From: Rickettsiales bacterium | GTDB taxonomy: Bacteria > Pseudomonadota > Alphaproteobacteria > Rickettsiales > UBA1997 | Length of the DNA: 47,125 nucleotides | Reading direction: 5' to 3' | Assembly: GCA_005787525.1 (NCBI GenBank) | Contig: SYAR01000060.1 | Span: 1 to 47,125, forward strand | Part shown: positions 2,445-46,992 of the stretch, one piece after another | Layout of the letters: each line of letters begins with the position of its first letter | How positions within the stretch are numbered: position 1 is the stretch's first letter | Notes under the pieces: model-generated | Seen by the model: the letters and a program-made list of their open reading frames with translations, nothing else | What the model was told of the DNA's origin: nothing | Database searches by the model: none | Position numbers and translations under genes: made by a program

Positions 2445-3491
2445 ATGAAAATTTCAACCTTAATTGAAAAATCTTTATTTGACGAAAAAAAAGGATATTA
2501 TAAAACCAAAAATCCGATTGGTAAAAATGCTGATTTCATAACCTCCCCAGAAATTTCGCAAATCTTTGGAGAGCTTGTGGCTGTTTATCTTCTTCATGTC
2601 GCTTCGCAATCAAAAAATCAGATTTCTTTGGTCGAAATGGGTGCGGGTAAAGGCACTTGGTTTAAAGATATTTTGCAAAGCATAAATAAACTAGCTCAAA
2701 AAAATAATCCGCAAGCGCTTGATTTTCTGAGTCGAACACAATTTCATATTATTGAAATAAATCCAGTTTTACAAAAAACTCAGCAACAAAATTTGCAAAA
2801 TTTTTTAATAAAATGGCATAAAAATTTTGATGATTTTTTGAAAGAAAAAAATGGTGAAATATTTTTTATTTCGAACGAACTTTTTGATTGCTTCGCCATT
2901 GATCAATATGTTAAAACCAATGAGGGTTGGCGCGAGAGATTAGTAAGGTTTAGCGATAAAAAAAATTTACAAAATCCGCAATTTTTTCTTGAAAAATATA
3001 AACCCGAAACTAATAATTTTGTTGAAGAAAAATTGGGAAAATTTTTATCGCAAAATGCTCCGCAAAAAGCGGTTTTTGAATATTCAGAATCCGCTCAAAA
3101 ATTTATGAAAAAATTGTGCGAAGCCATTAAAAAAGCTGGCGGAATGGCAATTAATTTTGATTATGGTTATAGTGAATATGAGTTTGCCAATACGTTACAA
3201 GCCATAAAAAATCATCAAAAAATTGCATTTTTAGAAGGGCTTTTTGATTGCGACATCACCGCTCAAGTTGATTTTTTAGCTCTCGACAAAATTGTTAAAA
3301 ATTTTGGGCTTAATTCTTCTTTAATTACACAAGAAGAATTTTTGTTAAGCTTGGGAGCCCAACAAAGAGTTGAGTTTCTGCTTGAAAAAAATCCGCTTTT
3401 ATCGCAAGAAATTTTAAGCGGATTTTCACGATTAATTGATAAAAATCAAATGGGAAAACTTTTCAAATCCCATATTTTTTGGAAAAAATAA
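2445..3491 (+). CDS. MidA/NDUFAF7-family SAM-dependent methyltransferase
   Basis: About 348 aa, matching the class I SAM-dependent methyltransferase family of mitochondrial NDUFAF7/MidA, which methylates an arginine of a complex I subunit during assembly. Visible motifs are the N-terminal GYY and ADFITSPEISQIFGE segment, the SAM-binding LVEMGAGKGTW, ISNELFDCFAID, and INFDYGY. I chose the ATG at 2445; an in-frame TTG at 2436 would add three residues. The gene follows hisH by 12 bp and is probably co-transcribed. A complex I gene (nuoF) in this window is consistent with the proposed role, but the substrate is inferred from the family. Confidence 0.85.
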   Translation: MKISTLIEKSLFDEKKGYYKTKNPIGKNADFITSPEISQIFGELVAVYLLHVASQSKNQISLVEMGAGKGTWFKDILQSINKLAQKNNPQALDFLSRTQFHIIEINPVLQKTQQQNLQNFLIKWHKNFDDFLKEKNGEIFFISNELFDCFAIDQYVKTNEGWRERLVRFSDKKNLQNPQFFLEKYKPETNNFVEEKLGKFLSQNAPQKAVFEYSESAQKFMKKLCEAIKKAGGMAINFDYGYSEYEFANTLQAIKNHQKIAFLEGLFDCDITAQVDFLALDKIVKNFGLNSSLITQEEFLLSLGAQQRVEFLLEKNPLLSQEILSGFSRLIDKNQMGKLFKSHIFWKK

Positions 3492-4964: not shown

Positions 4965-5975
4965 ATGAAAAATATTCAAAAATTTTCCACAGAAAATAGC
5001 GATAATTACGATTTTAATAACCAAAATTTCGATCAAAATATTCAACAAGATTGGCAAGTTGAAGAGGTTTTAAAATTATTTTCAATGTCGTTTAACGACT
5101 TGATTTTCAAGGCCTCGACACTTCATCGTCAAAATCACAATCCCAATGAAGTGCAAATTAGCACTTTGTTGAGCATCAAAACCGGTGCCTGTCCCGAAAA
5201 TTGTAAATATTGTCCGCAGTCTGCACATTATGATACAGGCCTAGAAAAACAAGGCTTGATGCCAATTGATAAAATTTTAGAATCAGCGGAAAATGCCAAG
5301 AAAGCTGGAGCCTCTAGGTTTTGTATGGGGGCGGCGTGGCGTAGTTTACATGATCGCGATGTCGAAAAAATTTGTGAAATCGTTGAGGCCGTCAAAGAGA
5401 CTGGCTTGGAAACCTGCATGACTCTAGGCATGCTTACAGATTCGCAAAGTAAAAAATTAAAAGAAGCGGGCTTGGATTATTACAATCACAACATCGATTC
5501 TTCCGAAGAATTTTACTCAGAAATTATTTCTACTCGTAATTTTTCTGATCGCCTCAACACTTTAAAAAATGTGCGCGAAGCGGGGTTAAATGTGTGCTCG
5601 GGCGGAATTGTCGGAATGGGCGAAACGCGAGAGGATCGCGCCAAAATGTTGATCGTGCTTGCGAACTTGCCAAAACAACCCGAATCGGTCCCAATTAATA
5701 TGTTGGTCAAAGTTAAGGGGACGCCACTTGAAAATGTTGCGAATCTTGATCCTTTTGAATTTATTCGGACAATTGCGGTGGCTAGAATCATGATGCCGAA
5801 AGCAAAAGTGCGATTATCGGCGGGTCGTGAGGAAATGGACGAGCAAACCCAAGCCTTATGTTTCTTGGCCGGAGCCAACTCGATTTTTTATGGCGAAAAA
5901 CTTTTAACAACGCAAAATCCACAAACTCAAAAAGATCAAGAATTATTTGCGAAGCTTGGAATTAAAGGGGTTTAG
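4965..5975 (+). CDS. bioB: Biotin synthase
   Basis: Radical-SAM biotin synthase, 336 aa, which inserts sulfur into dethiobiotin. The 4Fe-4S/SAM motif is complete: Cys76, Cys80 and Cys83 in [12 protein letters not shown]. The auxiliary 2Fe-2S cluster ligands Cys120, Cys151 and Cys211 are present at the same spacing as in the E. coli enzyme, as is an Arg in [10 protein letters not shown]. The N-terminus is about 25 residues longer than usual and Asn/Gln-rich. No other bio gene is nearby, so it is a lone bioB. That fits either a dispersed pathway or salvage of dethiobiotin or another precursor. Confidence 0.95.
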
Positions 5976-6159
5976 AACTATTATTTTTTAAATTATAAAC
6001 GAATATTTTCTATTTAAAAAACCGAAGTTTAAAATAAAATATTTAATTTAAACAAGTTGGTAAAATATTTTTAAATCAAAAAATTATTTTACTTTTATTT
6101 TTTGTTATTTATTTTTAGTAAAAACCCAAAAAATATAATATTTATAAATTGCCACTTTT

Positions 6160-6771
6160 ATGTTAAAAAAACTAAAAAAACTTTTTAATTTTTTCCAATA
6201 TTCTGTCGTAATCCTAGCTGTTGTTATTTTCACCTGGTTTATTTTTACCATAAAAGATTACAATAAAATGGATAAAAATGACCTTCCTTTTTTTGTCATC
6301 CAACAAGGCAAATTATCCCAAAAACAAATTGCCGATTTAACCAAATTTAGCGATGCCAAAAATATTTGGGTTATCAATGATAAAGAAGATTTTAATAGAG
6401 CCACAGAATTGCTAAAACAAAGTGCTGACGCAATTTCTTACGCTAACCAAGTTGGTCGCCTCGATGTGATTTCTATTCTCTTGGGAGTTGTTGCTATATT
6501 ATTTGGGTTGGCTGGGATAATCGGATTTTTGCATATCGAGACCGTAGTTAAAACAAAAATAAGTGAAGCTATTGAGTTAGAATTTAAAGAAGGGGGGCGG
6601 GCTCAACAAATGATTAGAGAAGAAGCAAAAAAATCTTTTGATAAAATGTCAAGTCGCCCAATTGATCCCTCTCTTGGCGAAGAAGGGGATGAAGATGATG
6701 AAGCTGAAGCATATTATGAAGAATTATTTAAAAAAATGAGAGATGAGATTAAAAAAATTGACAATAAATAA
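6160..6771 (+). CDS. Two-TM membrane protein with acidic cytoplasmic tail
   Basis: I do not recognise this 203-aa protein. It has a Lys-rich N-terminus, a transmembrane helix at about 12-30, a loop of about 70 residues, a second helix at about 102-123, and an 80-residue C-terminal tail. The tail contains a strongly acidic stretch (GEEGDEDDEAEA, about 173-184) and ends in a charged helix. By the positive-inside rule both ends should be cytoplasmic and the loop periplasmic. It is followed after 42 bp by an ImmA/IrrE-type metallopeptidase gene on the same strand, suggesting a functional pair. No function can be assigned. Confidence 0.7.
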   Translation: MLKKLKKLFNFFQYSVVILAVVIFTWFIFTIKDYNKMDKNDLPFFVIQQGKLSQKQIADLTKFSDAKNIWVINDKEDFNRATELLKQSADAISYANQVGRLDVISILLGVVAILFGLAGIIGFLHIETVVKTKISEAIELEFKEGGRAQQMIREEAKKSFDKMSSRPIDPSLGEEGDEDDEAEAYYEELFKKMRDEIKKIDNK

Positions 6772-6813
6772 CATCTAAATTTATAATAAGTTAAACATAA
6801 AATTATTTACAAA

Positions 6814-7356
6814 ATGAATCCAAATATTTTAAAAGACATCGAAACTATTCTTTGGAAACATAAAGTTCCAGTAAACATCGAAGAGCAGATTCGTAGCGAA
6901 GGAATTATTTTAAATAAAAGCTATCTAGATTTTGAAAAAGGTACATGTGGCGAATTAAAAAAAGAGAATGGTAAATTTATAATTAACATAAGTTGGGTTG
7001 ATCATTATTATCGTAAAAGATTTACTATGGCTCATGAGTTAGGGCATTTCATTTTGCATAAAGATTTAATTGGCAATGGCGTAGATGACAATAAGGAGTA
7101 TAAAAAATTAAATCGCACCAATAATAAAATTACCAACGCTCAAGAAGCCGAAGCCAATGATTATGCAGCAAAAGTTCTAATGCCAGAAGAAGCGATAATA
7201 GCTCTAGCTAAGTTAACCAAAATAATTAAATCGGTCAAAGGCGAAATTGATATTGATATTCTTTGGTTAGATTATTTATCAAAGAAATTCCAAGTATCTA
7301 AAGAGGCTTTCACCATTCGTTTAGCGAAACTTTCAAATAAAATACTTCCAATTTAA
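6814..7356 (+). CDS. ImmA/IrrE-family metallo-endopeptidase
   Basis: A 180-aa zinc peptidase of the ImmA/IrrE (COG2856) type. The catalytic motif is AHELGH with His74, Glu75 and His78. The third zinc ligand should be a Glu in the family motif EAEANDYAAKVLMP (residues 111-124). Relatives cleave repressor or antitoxin proteins and are common beside phage or toxin-antitoxin repressors, but no helix-turn-helix partner adjoins it here. The upstream partner is instead a two-TM protein with an acidic cytoplasmic tail. Membrane-linked regulated proteolysis is possible, but that is inference. Confidence 0.85.
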   Translation: MNPNILKDIETILWKHKVPVNIEEQIRSEGIILNKSYLDFEKGTCGELKKENGKFIINISWVDHYYRKRFTMAHELGHFILHKDLIGNGVDDNKEYKKLNRTNNKITNAQEAEANDYAAKVLMPEEAIIALAKLTKIIKSVKGEIDIDILWLDYLSKKFQVSKEAFTIRLAKLSNKILPI

Positions 7357-7367
7357 AATTAATCTTC

Positions 7368-7832
7368 ATGTCAAACTACGAAAAAAAATTAAATGAAATG
7401 GGAATTGCACTTCCTACTCCCTCAGCGCCTGTTGCCAATTATGTTGGCTTCGTAAAAACCGGAAATCTAATTTTTATTTCTGGGCAATTGCCGATGGAAA
7501 ACGGCAAATTGCAAGCGATTGGTAAAGTAGATATTGAGGTTTCTGTTGAAGAGGCGAAAAAAGCCGCTCGTTTGTGTGCTATCAACATTATCGCTCAATT
7601 AAAGTTAGCTTGCAAAGGCGATCTTGATAAGGTTGCTCAATGTATAAAGCTTGGAGTTTTTGTTAATGGTGGCGCCAATTTTAAAGATCATCCAGCGGTC
7701 GCCAATGGAGCTTCTGATTTAATCGCCGAAGTTTTTGGCGATGCGGGTAAGCACGCTCGAGCAGCGGTTGGTTCGGGCTCGCTTCCTTTTGGAGTGGCGG
7801 TTGAAGTTGATGCAATTTTTGAAGTGCTTTAA
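7368..7832 (+). CDS. RidA (YjgF/YER057c/UK114) family protein
   Basis: A 154-aa member of the Rid family, whose best-known members hydrolyse reactive enamine/imine intermediates released by PLP enzymes. Family features are visible: the VKTGNLIFISGQLP segment, the A(R/C)LCAINIIAQLK helix, and the C-terminal HARAAVGSGSLPFGVAVEVDAI strand-turn-strand region with the Arg that contacts the substrate carboxylate. It is longer than classic RidA (about 128 aa), as in other Rid subgroups. It starts 11 bp after the ImmA-type gene and may be co-transcribed. PLP dehydratase and aminotransferase genes elsewhere in the window are conceivable sources of substrate. Confidence 0.88.
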   Translation: MSNYEKKLNEMGIALPTPSAPVANYVGFVKTGNLIFISGQLPMENGKLQAIGKVDIEVSVEEAKKAARLCAINIIAQLKLACKGDLDKVAQCIKLGVFVNGGANFKDHPAVANGASDLIAEVFGDAGKHARAAVGSGSLPFGVAVEVDAIFEVL

Positions 7833-7907
7833 AAATTTCTCAAAAAAATAGTGCTTTGATTTTTTTTTAAATTAGTTTTGATAAAAATAATTTAAATAAT
7901 AAATTCC

Positions 7908-8690
7908 ATGTTGCTTTTCGACAAAGTTTTAAGAAATCTCATCAAAATTTCTTTGGTGGTGATAATTCTTTTTGCAATTTTATTTGCCACCTCTTTAGTT
8001 TTAGATTGGAGAATGAAAGAAAATAATAATGTTTCTCAAAAAGTTATAGTTGGGCGCGGGAGTGCTGAAGTAAAAGCTATTCCCGATGTTGCAAATTTCG
8101 TTTTTTCGGTAAAAAAAATGCAAAAAGAAGCCAAGGATGCTCAGCAAAAAATGATTGAAATATCAAATTTAGCTTTGCAAATTCTTGACAAAAAAGGTGT
8201 TGCTAAAAAAGATATTAAGACCATAAATTATTCAACTTATCCAGAATATAGCAAATCCCCAGAGTGCTCAGACGGCTTTTGCTCCGCCTCAAAAAATACC
8301 CTTAAAGGATTTGTTTCCAATCAAACTTTTTCTGTTAAGGTTCGCGATATCGTCAAGGCTTCGGAAATATTGAATGAGCTTTCTTCGCTTGGGGTTGAAG
8401 AGGTTGGGGGATTAACCTTCGTCATTGATTCCATGGAAAAAATAAAATATCAAGCGCGAATGCAGGCAATTGTAAATGCCAAAACCCAAGCCCAATCAAC
8501 GGCAAATGCTCTTAATGTTAAACTCAAAAGAATTGTAAAATTTGCAGAAGATGAAAATAATGGCTTTCAACCGCTTTATGCAAGAAGTGCAATGGCTTTA
8601 AATGATAATAATGAATTCAAAAATCCACAAATTCAGGCTGGCGAAGAAACAATTCGCTCTTCGGTGATTGTTACTTATGAGTTTGAATAA
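7908..8690 (+). CDS. SIMPL-domain (DUF541) envelope protein
   Basis: A 260-aa protein with an uncleaved N-terminal helix (about 10-33) followed by a SIMPL/DUF541 domain. Typical elements are the opening GRGSAEVKAIPDVANFVFSV strand, the KKGVAKKDIKTINY region, and the C-terminal half with repeated Ala/Gln-rich helix AQSTANALNV. Members are periplasmic or outer-membrane-facing oligomers of poorly understood function, linked in some bacteria to oxidative stress. The stop codon overlaps the ATG of xth by one base (TAATG), so the two are translationally coupled. Confidence 0.82.
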   Translation: MLLFDKVLRNLIKISLVVIILFAILFATSLVLDWRMKENNNVSQKVIVGRGSAEVKAIPDVANFVFSVKKMQKEAKDAQQKMIEISNLALQILDKKGVAKKDIKTINYSTYPEYSKSPECSDGFCSASKNTLKGFVSNQTFSVKVRDIVKASEILNELSSLGVEEVGGLTFVIDSMEKIKYQARMQAIVNAKTQAQSTANALNVKLKRIVKFAEDENNGFQPLYARSAMALNDNNEFKNPQIQAGEETIRSSVIVTYEFE

Positions 8691-45190: not shown

Positions 45191-46183
45191 ATGTCTTCAA
45201 ATTATAAAAAATCAGGTGTTGATATCGATGCAGGAAATGAATTGATTCACAAAATAAAGCCTTTCGCTAAGGCAACTTCAAGGCTTGGAGCCGATTCCGA
45301 TTTGGGAGGATTTGGAGCACTTTTTGATTTAAAAAAATGTAATTTTCATGATCCAGTTTTGGTTTCTTCAACTGATGGCGTAGGCACCAAGCTCAAAGTT
45401 GCGATTGAAACTAAAATTCATAATTCAATTGGAATTGATTTGGTTGCCATGTCGGTTAACGACTTGATAGTACAAGGGGCGGAGCCACTTTTCTTTCTCG
45501 ATTATTTTGCTTGTTCAAAACTTGAAGTCGAGATTGCAACTCAAGTAATCAAGGGAATCGCTGATGGCTGTAAGCTTGCTGGTTGTGCCTTAATTGGTGG
45601 CGAAACCGCCGAAATGCCGGGAATGTATCGGGGAGGCGATTATGATTTGGCGGGTTTTGCGGTTGGAGCAGTTGAAAGAGCGGAGATTTTGCCGAAAATA
45701 ACTTCAAAAGGTGATGTACTTATCGGTCTTGCTTCAAGTGGCTTGCACTCAAATGGCTATTCACTTGCTCGCTATATATTACAACAAAATTCTTTGAATT
45801 TTTTTAATAAATTTAATAATGAAAAAACTCTCGGTGAAGAATTATTAACGCCAACAAAAATTTATGTAAAATCATGTTTATCAGCAATTAAAACTTCGAA
45901 AGTAAAAGCCTTGGCTCATATTACCGGAGGCGGATTGATTGAAAATTTACCACGGGTTTTATCGCCAAATGTTGAGGCAAAAATCGATTATAATTCATGG
46001 CAAAAACCTGAAATTTTTAATTTTTTACAAAAGCTCGGAAAGGTTGAGGATCAAGAGATGCGCCGCACTTTCAATTGTGGAATTGGTATGGTTTTAGTGG
46101 TCGATAAAAATGATGTTTTGGAAATAAAAAATATTTTAGAAAAACATCATGAAACTGTTTACATTATTGGAGAATTAGCATGA
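45191..46183 (+). CDS. purM: Phosphoribosylformylglycinamidine cyclo-ligase
   Basis: AIR synthetase, 330 aa, fifth step of purine synthesis. The GVDIDAGNELIHKIKP start, STDGVGTKLKVA, SVNDLIVQGAEPLFFLDYF, GGETAEMPGMY, GLASSGLHSNGYSL, ITGGGLIENLPRVL and FNCGIGMVLVV are diagnostic and intact. In most alphaproteobacteria purN follows with an overlapping start; here an IleRS C-terminal piece occupies that place. Other purine genes are not in view. Confidence 0.96.
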   Translation: MSSNYKKSGVDIDAGNELIHKIKPFAKATSRLGADSDLGGFGALFDLKKCNFHDPVLVSSTDGVGTKLKVAIETKIHNSIGIDLVAMSVNDLIVQGAEPLFFLDYFACSKLEVEIATQVIKGIADGCKLAGCALIGGETAEMPGMYRGGDYDLAGFAVGAVERAEILPKITSKGDVLIGLASSGLHSNGYSLARYILQQNSLNFFNKFNNEKTLGEELLTPTKIYVKSCLSAIKTSKVKALAHITGGGLIENLPRVLSPNVEAKIDYNSWQKPEIFNFLQKLGKVEDQEMRRTFNCGIGMVLVVDKNDVLEIKNILEKHHETVYIIGELA

Positions 46184-46992
46184 TTGATCGTTCAATTTCT
46201 ATTCATTTACAAGATTTTCCGAATGTTGATTTTATTGATGCAGAAGCTCAATTAATTAATGACATGGATTTGGTTCGCTCGATTTGTTCGACCGCTTTAG
46301 CGATTCGTGATAATAAAAATTTACGAGTGCGCCTACCGCTTCAAAGCCTTACTATTATCGGTAAAGATGCTCAAAGAATTTTACCTTTTAGCGAAATTAT
46401 TGCCGAAGAAGTTAATGTTAAAGAAATTAAAATTGTTGAAGAAATTTCACAATTTGCCGAAAATAAATTGCAAATTAATTTTAAAAAAATTGGGGCTAAA
46501 TTTGGAGCAAAAATTAAAGAAATTACTAACGCAATTAAAGAAGGTGATTGGCAAAAAATTAATGACAAAACCATTAAAATTGCGGGCGTAGAACTTGTTG
46601 ATGATGATTTTGAATTAAAATTAACCACAAAAAATATTGACGAAAAAAAATCGGCAATTTTGCCTTTGGCGAGCAATGATTATTTAGTTTTGTTATCAAT
46701 TGAAATCACCAAAGAGCTAGAGGATGAAGGTATTGCCCGCGATATTGTGCGAGCAATTCAACAAAATCGTAAAGACGCTAATCTTGAAATTACTAATCAT
46801 ATTAATCTCGAAATTTTTTCTTCCAATTCGCGAATTATTGAAGTGGCTGTTAACTTTGAAGATTATATAAAACATCAAGTTTTAGCAAAAAATATTAAAA
46901 TTTTATCACAAAAAAACGTTAATGCAGAAGCGAAAATTTTTAGCAATCAACTTGATGATGGTGATTTGGAAATTTCAATTAGGATCTGTTAA
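46180..46992 (+). CDS. Stand-alone C-terminal part of isoleucyl-tRNA synthetase
   Basis: A 270-aa ORF matching only the C-terminal quarter of type-2 (eukaryotic-like) isoleucyl-tRNA synthetase. It begins at the SIHLQDFP segment that lies near the end of the anticodon-binding helical bundle. It continues with [28 protein letters not shown], and the DUF5915-like C-terminal domain ([24 protein letters not shown], quoted in part). The catalytic Rossmann, HIGH and KMSKS regions are absent. The ATG overlaps the purM stop (ATGA), so it is placed for coupled translation. No internal stop is present. It may be a split-gene part, a recombination remnant, or an assembly join. Confidence 0.8.

What the first reader, a model, noticed from the sequence alone, without database searches (positions are those of the whole stretch)
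46180..46992. An isolated IleRS C-terminal domain, translationally coupled to purM
The ORF corresponds to the end of type-2 isoleucyl-tRNA synthetase, from the SIHLQDFP segment to the C-terminus, but lacks the whole catalytic core. It starts at an ATG that overlaps the purM stop, exactly where purN normally starts, and remains open to its end. This could be a split synthetase working in trans, a domain with a new job (for example tRNA binding), a recombination scar in a live genome, or a misassembly. The break lies close to a domain border, which makes it more interesting than a random cut.
Basis: partly seen in the sequence, partly recalled or inferred. Interest (0 to 1): 0.75.

Follow-up and report, generated by a model that had tools for sequence, protein, structure and literature searches.

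The report
Isoleucyl-tRNA synthetase split into two genes
In a family of uncultured Rickettsiales-like bacteria, the essential enzyme that loads isoleucine onto its tRNA appears to be made from two genes far apart in the genome (three in some relatives) instead of one, and the fragment seen here beside purM is the half that grips the tRNA.

Summary
In detail: 46180-46992 encodes the C-terminal 270 aa of a type-2 isoleucyl-tRNA synthetase (IleRS), with an ATG overlapping the purM stop. It is not an orphan. The same genome holds one IleRS core (862 aa) on another contig, and that core stops where the fragment begins; together they tile the Priestia IleRS2 structure (39-762 and 770-1008). Misassembly and a decaying scar are effectively excluded: of 31 genomes of this family, 23 show both separate pieces and none a fused gene, and relatives with one or few contigs hold the pieces far apart. 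The fragment is under purifying selection (dN/dS 0.055-0.14) and keeps 96% of residues conserved in fused homologues. Best reading: a two-subunit IleRS assembling non-covalently through a shared helical bundle. The cut lies in a loop inside the anticodon-binding bundle. The gene tree needs at least four changes at this loop within the order. In part of the sister family the core is cut again, inside the editing domain, giving a three-gene IleRS, at a site where sister genera carry an inserted acetyltransferase domain. Split synthetases are known; ten searches of the held papers found no natural split IleRS. Assembly and activity are inferred, not shown.

The parts
46180..46992 (+). C-terminal subunit of split type-2 IleRS, 270 aa
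46246..46314 (+). residues 23-45: predicted helix that corresponds to the last helix of the anticodon-binding bundle, whose other helices are in the other gene
   Evidence: helix in the AlphaFold2 model; Anticodon_1 split 1-87 / 94-145 between the two proteins
46393..46932 (+). residues 72-251: DUF5915, the C-terminal part of type-2 IleRS
   Evidence: PF19302, E 2.1e-30
46169..46174 (+). GGAGAA, ribosome-binding-site-like, inside the end of purM, 5 bases before the ATG
   Evidence: read; the upstream bases of 27 family loci are printed (GGAG is present in many of those that overlap purM); function inferred
45191..46183 (+). purM, upstream gene whose stop overlaps the start of the C subunit (ATGA)
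   Evidence: TIGR00878 447.5 bits; purM upstream in 18 of 27 family loci, 11 of them with the 4-base overlap

Best explanation
A two-subunit isoleucyl-tRNA synthetase. One gene (on contig C17, outside the window) makes an 862-aa subunit with the catalytic site, the editing domain and most of the anticodon-binding helical bundle. The gene at 46180-46992 makes a 270-aa subunit with the last helix of that bundle and the C-terminal tRNA-binding domains. The two proteins are made separately (the small one coupled to purM), then the last helix docks onto the bundle and the C-terminal domains hold the anticodon arm, giving one working enzyme without a covalent link. Shown: both genes, complementary and non-overlapping coverage, conservation, selection, family-wide split. 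Inferred: docking, necessity of both parts, aminoacylation.
For: Own genome: one IleRS core, 862 aa, stop after ...LPFTSEFVWCGLKSVKK, and one C part, each a single hit. The core alone passes the ileS model cut-off (832.8 against 621.4 bits). N part 75-853 = 8c8v 39-762 (table), C part 7-242 = 8c8v 770-1008. Family: C part stand-alone in 27 of 31 genomes (frames 263-292 aa; the other 4 have no hit), and in 6 of 6 more family genomes; N part with its stop seen in 27 of 31; both pieces in 23 of 31; fused in 0 of 31. dN/dS over 10 pairs: C 0.055-0.140, N 0.041-0.109, purM 0.033-0.095. Residues conserved at 90% or more in 25 fused enzymes are kept in 961 of 999 cells in the family; fused leave-one-out 896 of 945. 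AlphaFold2 model of the C part, pLDDT 87.4, pTM 0.70; VIA-align Z 19.7 to yeast IleRS 8wnd and 19.1 to 8c8v over the whole length. No relic of the other half at either locus (0 of 23 N loci; 2 of 20 C loci hit, one being valS next door, one at E 0.009).
Against: No protein, expression or activity data. Complex not modelled (only single chains could be folded). All genomes compared are uncultured-type assemblies known here by handle only. 4 of 31 family genomes lack a C hit (G002, G016, G026, G029; one of them 96% complete). In f15 the C part keeps fewer of the conserved residues (424 of 518, 82%), as expected from long branches but also open to relaxed constraint.
Confidence: 0.92

Rival explanations
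1. The core works alone and the C part has taken another job, for example binding tRNA or acting in purine metabolism beside purM.
For: The core alone passes the ileS cut-off. purM coupling in 18 of 27 family loci.
Against: C part keeps IleRS-typical residues as well as fused enzymes do. Its neighbours vary: purM, lptF, eno, ubiG and valS, lpxC, trhO in different genomes, so no link to purines. It also carries the last helix of the bundle, which the core lacks.
Confidence: 0.05
2. Misassembly, mis-binning or contig-end artefact.
For: The gene ends 133 bases from the end of contig C53; the genome is 92 contigs, 84.8% complete.
Against: Same break in 27 of 27 family genomes with a C hit. G161, a single contig of 1,205,153 bases, has the core at about 768-771 kb and C at 499 kb. 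G120 holds three pieces inside contigs of 134, 192 and 220 kb. G051 and G053 likewise inside long contigs.
Confidence: 0.005
3. Recombination scar or decaying pseudogene, with another IleRS doing the work.
For: Fission by rearrangement must have happened once.
Against: Open frames in every family genome with a hit, dN/dS 0.055-0.14, and the PF00133 search of the own genome shows no second IleRS core (seven matches in five frames, which I read as IleRS, ValRS and shorter synthetases; the 597-aa one reads as ArgRS).
Confidence: 0.01
4. The halves are rejoined by protein or RNA trans-splicing into a normal single chain.
For: Would also need both genes.
Against: After the last conserved motif the family core proteins have only a few residues (about 1-9) and the C proteins start 3-6 residues before the S[IV]HL motif, so there is no room for split-intein halves; both genes have their own start and stop.
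Confidence: 0.015

Closest known systems
Type-2 (eukaryote-like) isoleucyl-tRNA synthetase, Priestia megaterium IleRS2 (8c8v), MupA/MupB
   Same: Sequence, domain order and fold of both halves together
   Different: One chain there; two (or three) genes here
Alpha/beta leucyl-tRNA synthetase of Aquifex (recalled; no paper on it was read here)
   Same: Class I synthetase of the Ile/Leu/Val group divided into two genes
   Different: Recalled cut lies elsewhere (in or near the editing domain); here it is in the anticodon bundle, with a second cut in the editing domain in some relatives
Split AlaRS of Nanoarchaeum (recalled) and bacterial PylSn/PylSc (a passage of PMC4427996, mentions the bacterial N-terminal split gene product)
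   Same: A normally single synthetase encoded in separate genes
   Different: Unrelated enzymes and cut sites
Laboratory-cut E. [quoted passage not shown] seen only as a reference in PMC12069011; content recalled, also a three-piece version recalled)
   Same: IleRS in two or three fragments assembling in trans
   Different: Artificial, type-1 enzyme; here natural, type-2 and inherited across families
NCBIfam NF040702 ileS_w_GNAT
   Same: IleRS with an inserted acetyltransferase domain, as in several relatives
   Different: Scores here are far below its cut-off (281-341 against 1999 bits)

Membership tests
Type-2 isoleucyl-tRNA synthetase | Catalytic HIGH and KMSKS-type motifs and editing motifs in the genome's IleRS core | tested here: met
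   PHYGH 89, TTTPWTLP 278, GTGIVHIAPGFGEDD 381, KLSKR 676 in the 862-aa core; TIGR00392 832.8 bits over cut-off. Motif names recalled.
Type-2 isoleucyl-tRNA synthetase | Type-2 C-terminal region | tested here: met
   DUF5915, MupA/MupB C-terminal match, 8c8v 770-1008, Z 19.1
Type-2 isoleucyl-tRNA synthetase | Single polypeptide | tested here: not met
   Two separate genes
Naturally split aminoacyl-tRNA synthetase | Complementary pieces in separate genes, each intact and conserved | tested here: met
   Both pieces in 23 of 31 family genomes, 0 fused; selection
Naturally split aminoacyl-tRNA synthetase | Pieces bind and form the active enzyme | not testable with these tools
   Needs proteins
Alpha/beta LeuRS | Leucine enzyme | tested here: not met
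   Core is ileS by TIGR00392

The most novel reading that the evidence does not exclude
In two sister families IleRS is an obligate heteromer: two subunits from unlinked genes, and in a clade of the second family three subunits, with even the editing domain divided between two proteins. Fission recurred at least four times at one loop within the order, and the second fission site is the very loop in which sister genera carry an inserted GNAT domain, so IleRS here is a natural case of stepwise fragmentation of an essential enzyme along insertion-tolerant loops.
Probability: 0.75. Interest if true: 0.82.

Novelty: new variant of a known kind. Interest (0 to 1): 0.73.

Why it matters
IleRS is essential and, as far as the searches here show, is otherwise one chain. 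A natural series from one gene to two to three, with repeated independent fission at the same loop, makes a classic question testable: which joints of a large enzyme can be cut without loss, and what follows (non-covalent assembly, dosage balance between unlinked genes, possible later inserts). It also warns annotators: the core alone passes the ileS cut-off and the C part is likely to be left as a DUF, so such splits are easily missed.

Tried and rejected
Misassembly, pseudogene, new function and trans-splicing: see rivals. One common origin of all splits: the C tree alone does not reject it (f1+f15+G051 as one clade p-AU 0.31; all split rows as one clade p 0.052), but joined N+C data do (p 3.2e-6 and 1.3e-59). 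Transfer of the C gene of G051 from the window's family, suggested because both G051 and some family members have it beside lptF: not rejected by the C tree (f1+G051 p 0.197), not shown either. Ancient duplication of the C domain followed by loss of one copy, suggested by G111 (fused gene plus a stand-alone C domain): the stand-alone copy of G111 does not group with the split C parts of f1/f15 in the best tree, so not supported as the general route. Giant ORF around a G127 piece: produced by a withheld stretch that reads N, not real. The AlphaFold2 model of a fused relative (G046) is poor in the catalytic core (mean pLDDT 73.7); only its bundle was used. Split elsewhere in the class: 385 genomes, 38 hits, 34 outside the order: 32 with frames of 902 aa or more, G232 (576) and G479 (117) not inspected.

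Papers: ten searches in the held open-licence library. Passages seen: PMC9352585 and PMC10847448 (the term 'tRNA synthetase' occurs 0 times in either main text), PMC10485003, PMC12069011 (a reference), PMC2688493 (its 'split' concerns rRNA operons) and PMC4427996. All other listed papers: listing only. One search asked for Shiba and Schimmel and for the Deianiraea paper; neither is held, so their content is recalled.

Full report
What is there. The window is the whole of contig C53 of a 1.46-Mb assembly in 92 contigs, 84.8% complete. The ORF at 46180-46992 encodes 270 aa; its ATG overlaps the stop of purM as ATGA, with GGAGAA five bases before it (read). It is the C-terminal region of a type-2 IleRS: MupB/MupA match, DUF5915 and the end of the Anticodon_1 domain (the latter under its cut-off), and residues 770-1008 of Priestia megaterium IleRS2.

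The missing part is in the same genome. A search with the class I catalytic domain found one IleRS core, on contig C17. It is 862 aa, has the expected motifs at residues 89, 278, 381 and 676, passes the ileS model (832.8 bits against 621.4) and stops after ...PFTSEFVWCGLKSVKK, where the window's fragment takes over with [14 protein letters not shown]. On the Priestia enzyme the core covers 39-762 and the fragment 770-1008: together one IleRS, nothing doubled, nothing large missing. Each piece is a single hit in the genome at the limits used.

The split is a family trait. Of 31 genomes of the family (f1), 27 have the C part, each in a frame of 263-292 aa; G002, G016, G026 and G029 have no hit. 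The core was found with its stop codon at the same place in 27 of the 31 (21, one, five); 23 genomes show both pieces and none shows a fused gene. Six further family genomes also have stand-alone C parts (frames 287-356 aa). Across the order, (216 genomes, 198 with a match, only the best 150 rows printed) gives 104 rows of 1000 aa or more, 34 of 360 aa or less and 12 between (tallied). The short rows are 22 of f1, 6 of f15, and G049 (f20), G051 and G111 (f22), G053 (f24), G140 and G152 (f29). For G140 and G152 the frame runs into the end of the stretch held, so they are undecided. G111 has a fused gene, cut by the contig end, and a second, stand-alone C domain about 0.8 kb further on.

The sister family f15 goes further. 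Of 18 f15 genomes, 15 have a C match, 14 in frames of 257-345 aa and one (G090) cut by contig ends. Five (G109, G090, G044, G195, G161) have a complete core ORF of 1132-1293 aa without the C part. In another five (G143, G136, G155, G149, G120) the core itself is two genes: a first of 287-330 aa ending at about residue 318-325 of our core and a second of 565-722 aa starting at about 328-333, plus the C gene. G179 shows the same three pieces but its second is interrupted by a stop or frameshift, and the first piece of G127 borders a withheld stretch. The core was not found in G173 and G065, and C not in G101, G187 and G191. In G120 the three genes lie inside contigs of 134, 192 and 220 kb; in G161, a single contig of 1,205,153 bases, core and C are about 270 kb apart. 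The cut divides the editing domain: TTTPWT goes with the first piece and GTG..H.AP.FG with the second (motif positions; domain limits recalled).

It is selected, and as an IleRS. Between five close family members (10 pairs), dN/dS is 0.055-0.140 for C, 0.041-0.109 for the core and 0.033-0.095 for purM (dS up to 2.7 for the farthest pairs, so those ratios are rough). Of 37 columns conserved at 90% or more in 25 fused enzymes, family C parts keep 961 of 999 cells (96%), f15 424 of 518 (82%), G053 37 of 37, G051 35 of 37, G049 34 of 37; fused enzymes scored leave-one-out keep 896 of 945 (95%). For the core: f1 6322 of 6776, f15 1293 of 1458, fused 7245 of 7537. The C model (pLDDT 87.4, pTM 0.70) matches yeast IleRS (Z 19.7, 260 residues, rmsd 5.5) and Priestia IleRS2 (Z 19.1, 258 residues, rmsd 8.1) along its whole length; the high rmsd suggests a shift between subdomains.

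Where the cut lies. Anticodon_1 is divided 1-87 (core) and 94-145 (C). In the model of a fused relative the joint falls in the loop 788-811 between helices 775-787 and 812-834, a region modelled at pLDDT 80-93 although the catalytic part of that model is poor. So the C protein brings the last helix of a bundle whose other helices are in the core; this is the reason to expect docking (inference). In the family's split core proteins little follows the last conserved motif, and the C proteins begin 3-6 residues before S[IV]HL. PMC10485003 (passages) describes three subdomains in the C-terminal anticodon-binding domain of IleRS2.

History. On 49 genomes with core and C joined, f1 and f15 form one side of a branch (SH-aLRT 96), and the split label needs four changes, all forced by starred branches; holding f1, f15 and G051 together is rejected (p-AU 3.2e-6), as is holding all split rows together (1.3e-59). 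The core tree alone also needs four, the C tree five with G111 counted. The C tree alone does not reject fewer origins, so the claim rests mainly on the core. The counts do not tell gain from loss, but 32 of 34 type-2 hits outside the order are fused, which makes fission the likely direction. G049, G051 and G053 are single genomes. The three-gene genomes sit in one C-tree clade (96/91). The joints look insertion-tolerant: in G049 a 141-aa ORF lies between core and C, overlapping both; in the fused gene of G041 a 27-aa insert sits at the joint; and at the second cut site G109, G090 and G195 carry inserts of 134-146 aa at residue 326 that match GNAT acetyltransferase models.

Surroundings. purM is directly upstream of C in 18 of 27 family loci, with the 4-base overlap in 11; nine have other neighbours. 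Elsewhere C sits after eno, trhO or ubiG, before valS or lpxC, or divergent from lptF. The C gene has moved between operons and been kept, which argues that purM coupling is local, not functional.

What is shown and what is not. Shown: the pieces, their fit, their conservation and their spread. Inferred: that the proteins bind, that both are needed, that the complex charges tRNA-Ile. Names of the families (Gamibacteraceae for f1, Deianiraeaceae for f15) are inferred from their sister relation and a passage of PMC9352585. Ten paper searches (listed under Tried and rejected) found no description of a natural split IleRS; the library holds open-licence papers only.

Noticed in passing
L181, L156 (family f1), L175, L176, L178, L177 (f15), L137 (f5): IleRS genes of the order carry inserted GNAT acetyltransferase domains at several loops (about residues 326, 440 and 509-511 of our core); G044, G109, G090 and G195 have two each.
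   Followed up: partly
L142 (G060), L146 (G103), L182 (G003): DUF559 (nuclease-like) domains inserted in frame inside IleRS; in G003 the piece starts at a contig end.
   Followed up: partly
L150:3-1712 and 2518-3300: G111 has a fused IleRS (cut by the contig end) followed by an extra stand-alone C domain: a possible intermediate, or a spare part.
   Followed up: partly
L131:3637-4062: In G049 a 141-aa membrane-like ORF (weak MFS match, under cut-off) sits between IleRS core and C part and overlaps both by a base.
   Followed up: partly
L070 (G041): 27-aa insert resembling a Rickettsia palindromic element (label recalled) exactly at the IleRS joint of a fused gene.
   Followed up: no
L159:5065-5856 and 5861-8479: In G143 the IleRS C gene lies just upstream of valS.
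   Followed up: no
L151, L168, L169: The C gene is divergent from lptF both in G051 (f22) and in f1 members G014 and G030, although joined trees put G051 elsewhere; shared place or transfer is open.
   Followed up: partly
L188:1196-3184: In G179 the second piece of the three-gene IleRS is interrupted by a stop or frameshift: sequencing error or decay.
   Followed up: no
window 45191-46183 and genome: No purN was found in the assembly although purM is present; only one Formyl_trans_N gene, in an 84.8%-complete genome.
   Followed up: partly
L039, L041: Public records of these relatives carry improbable titles (Rickettsia typhi, Rhizobium sp.), probably mislabelled assemblies.
   Followed up: no
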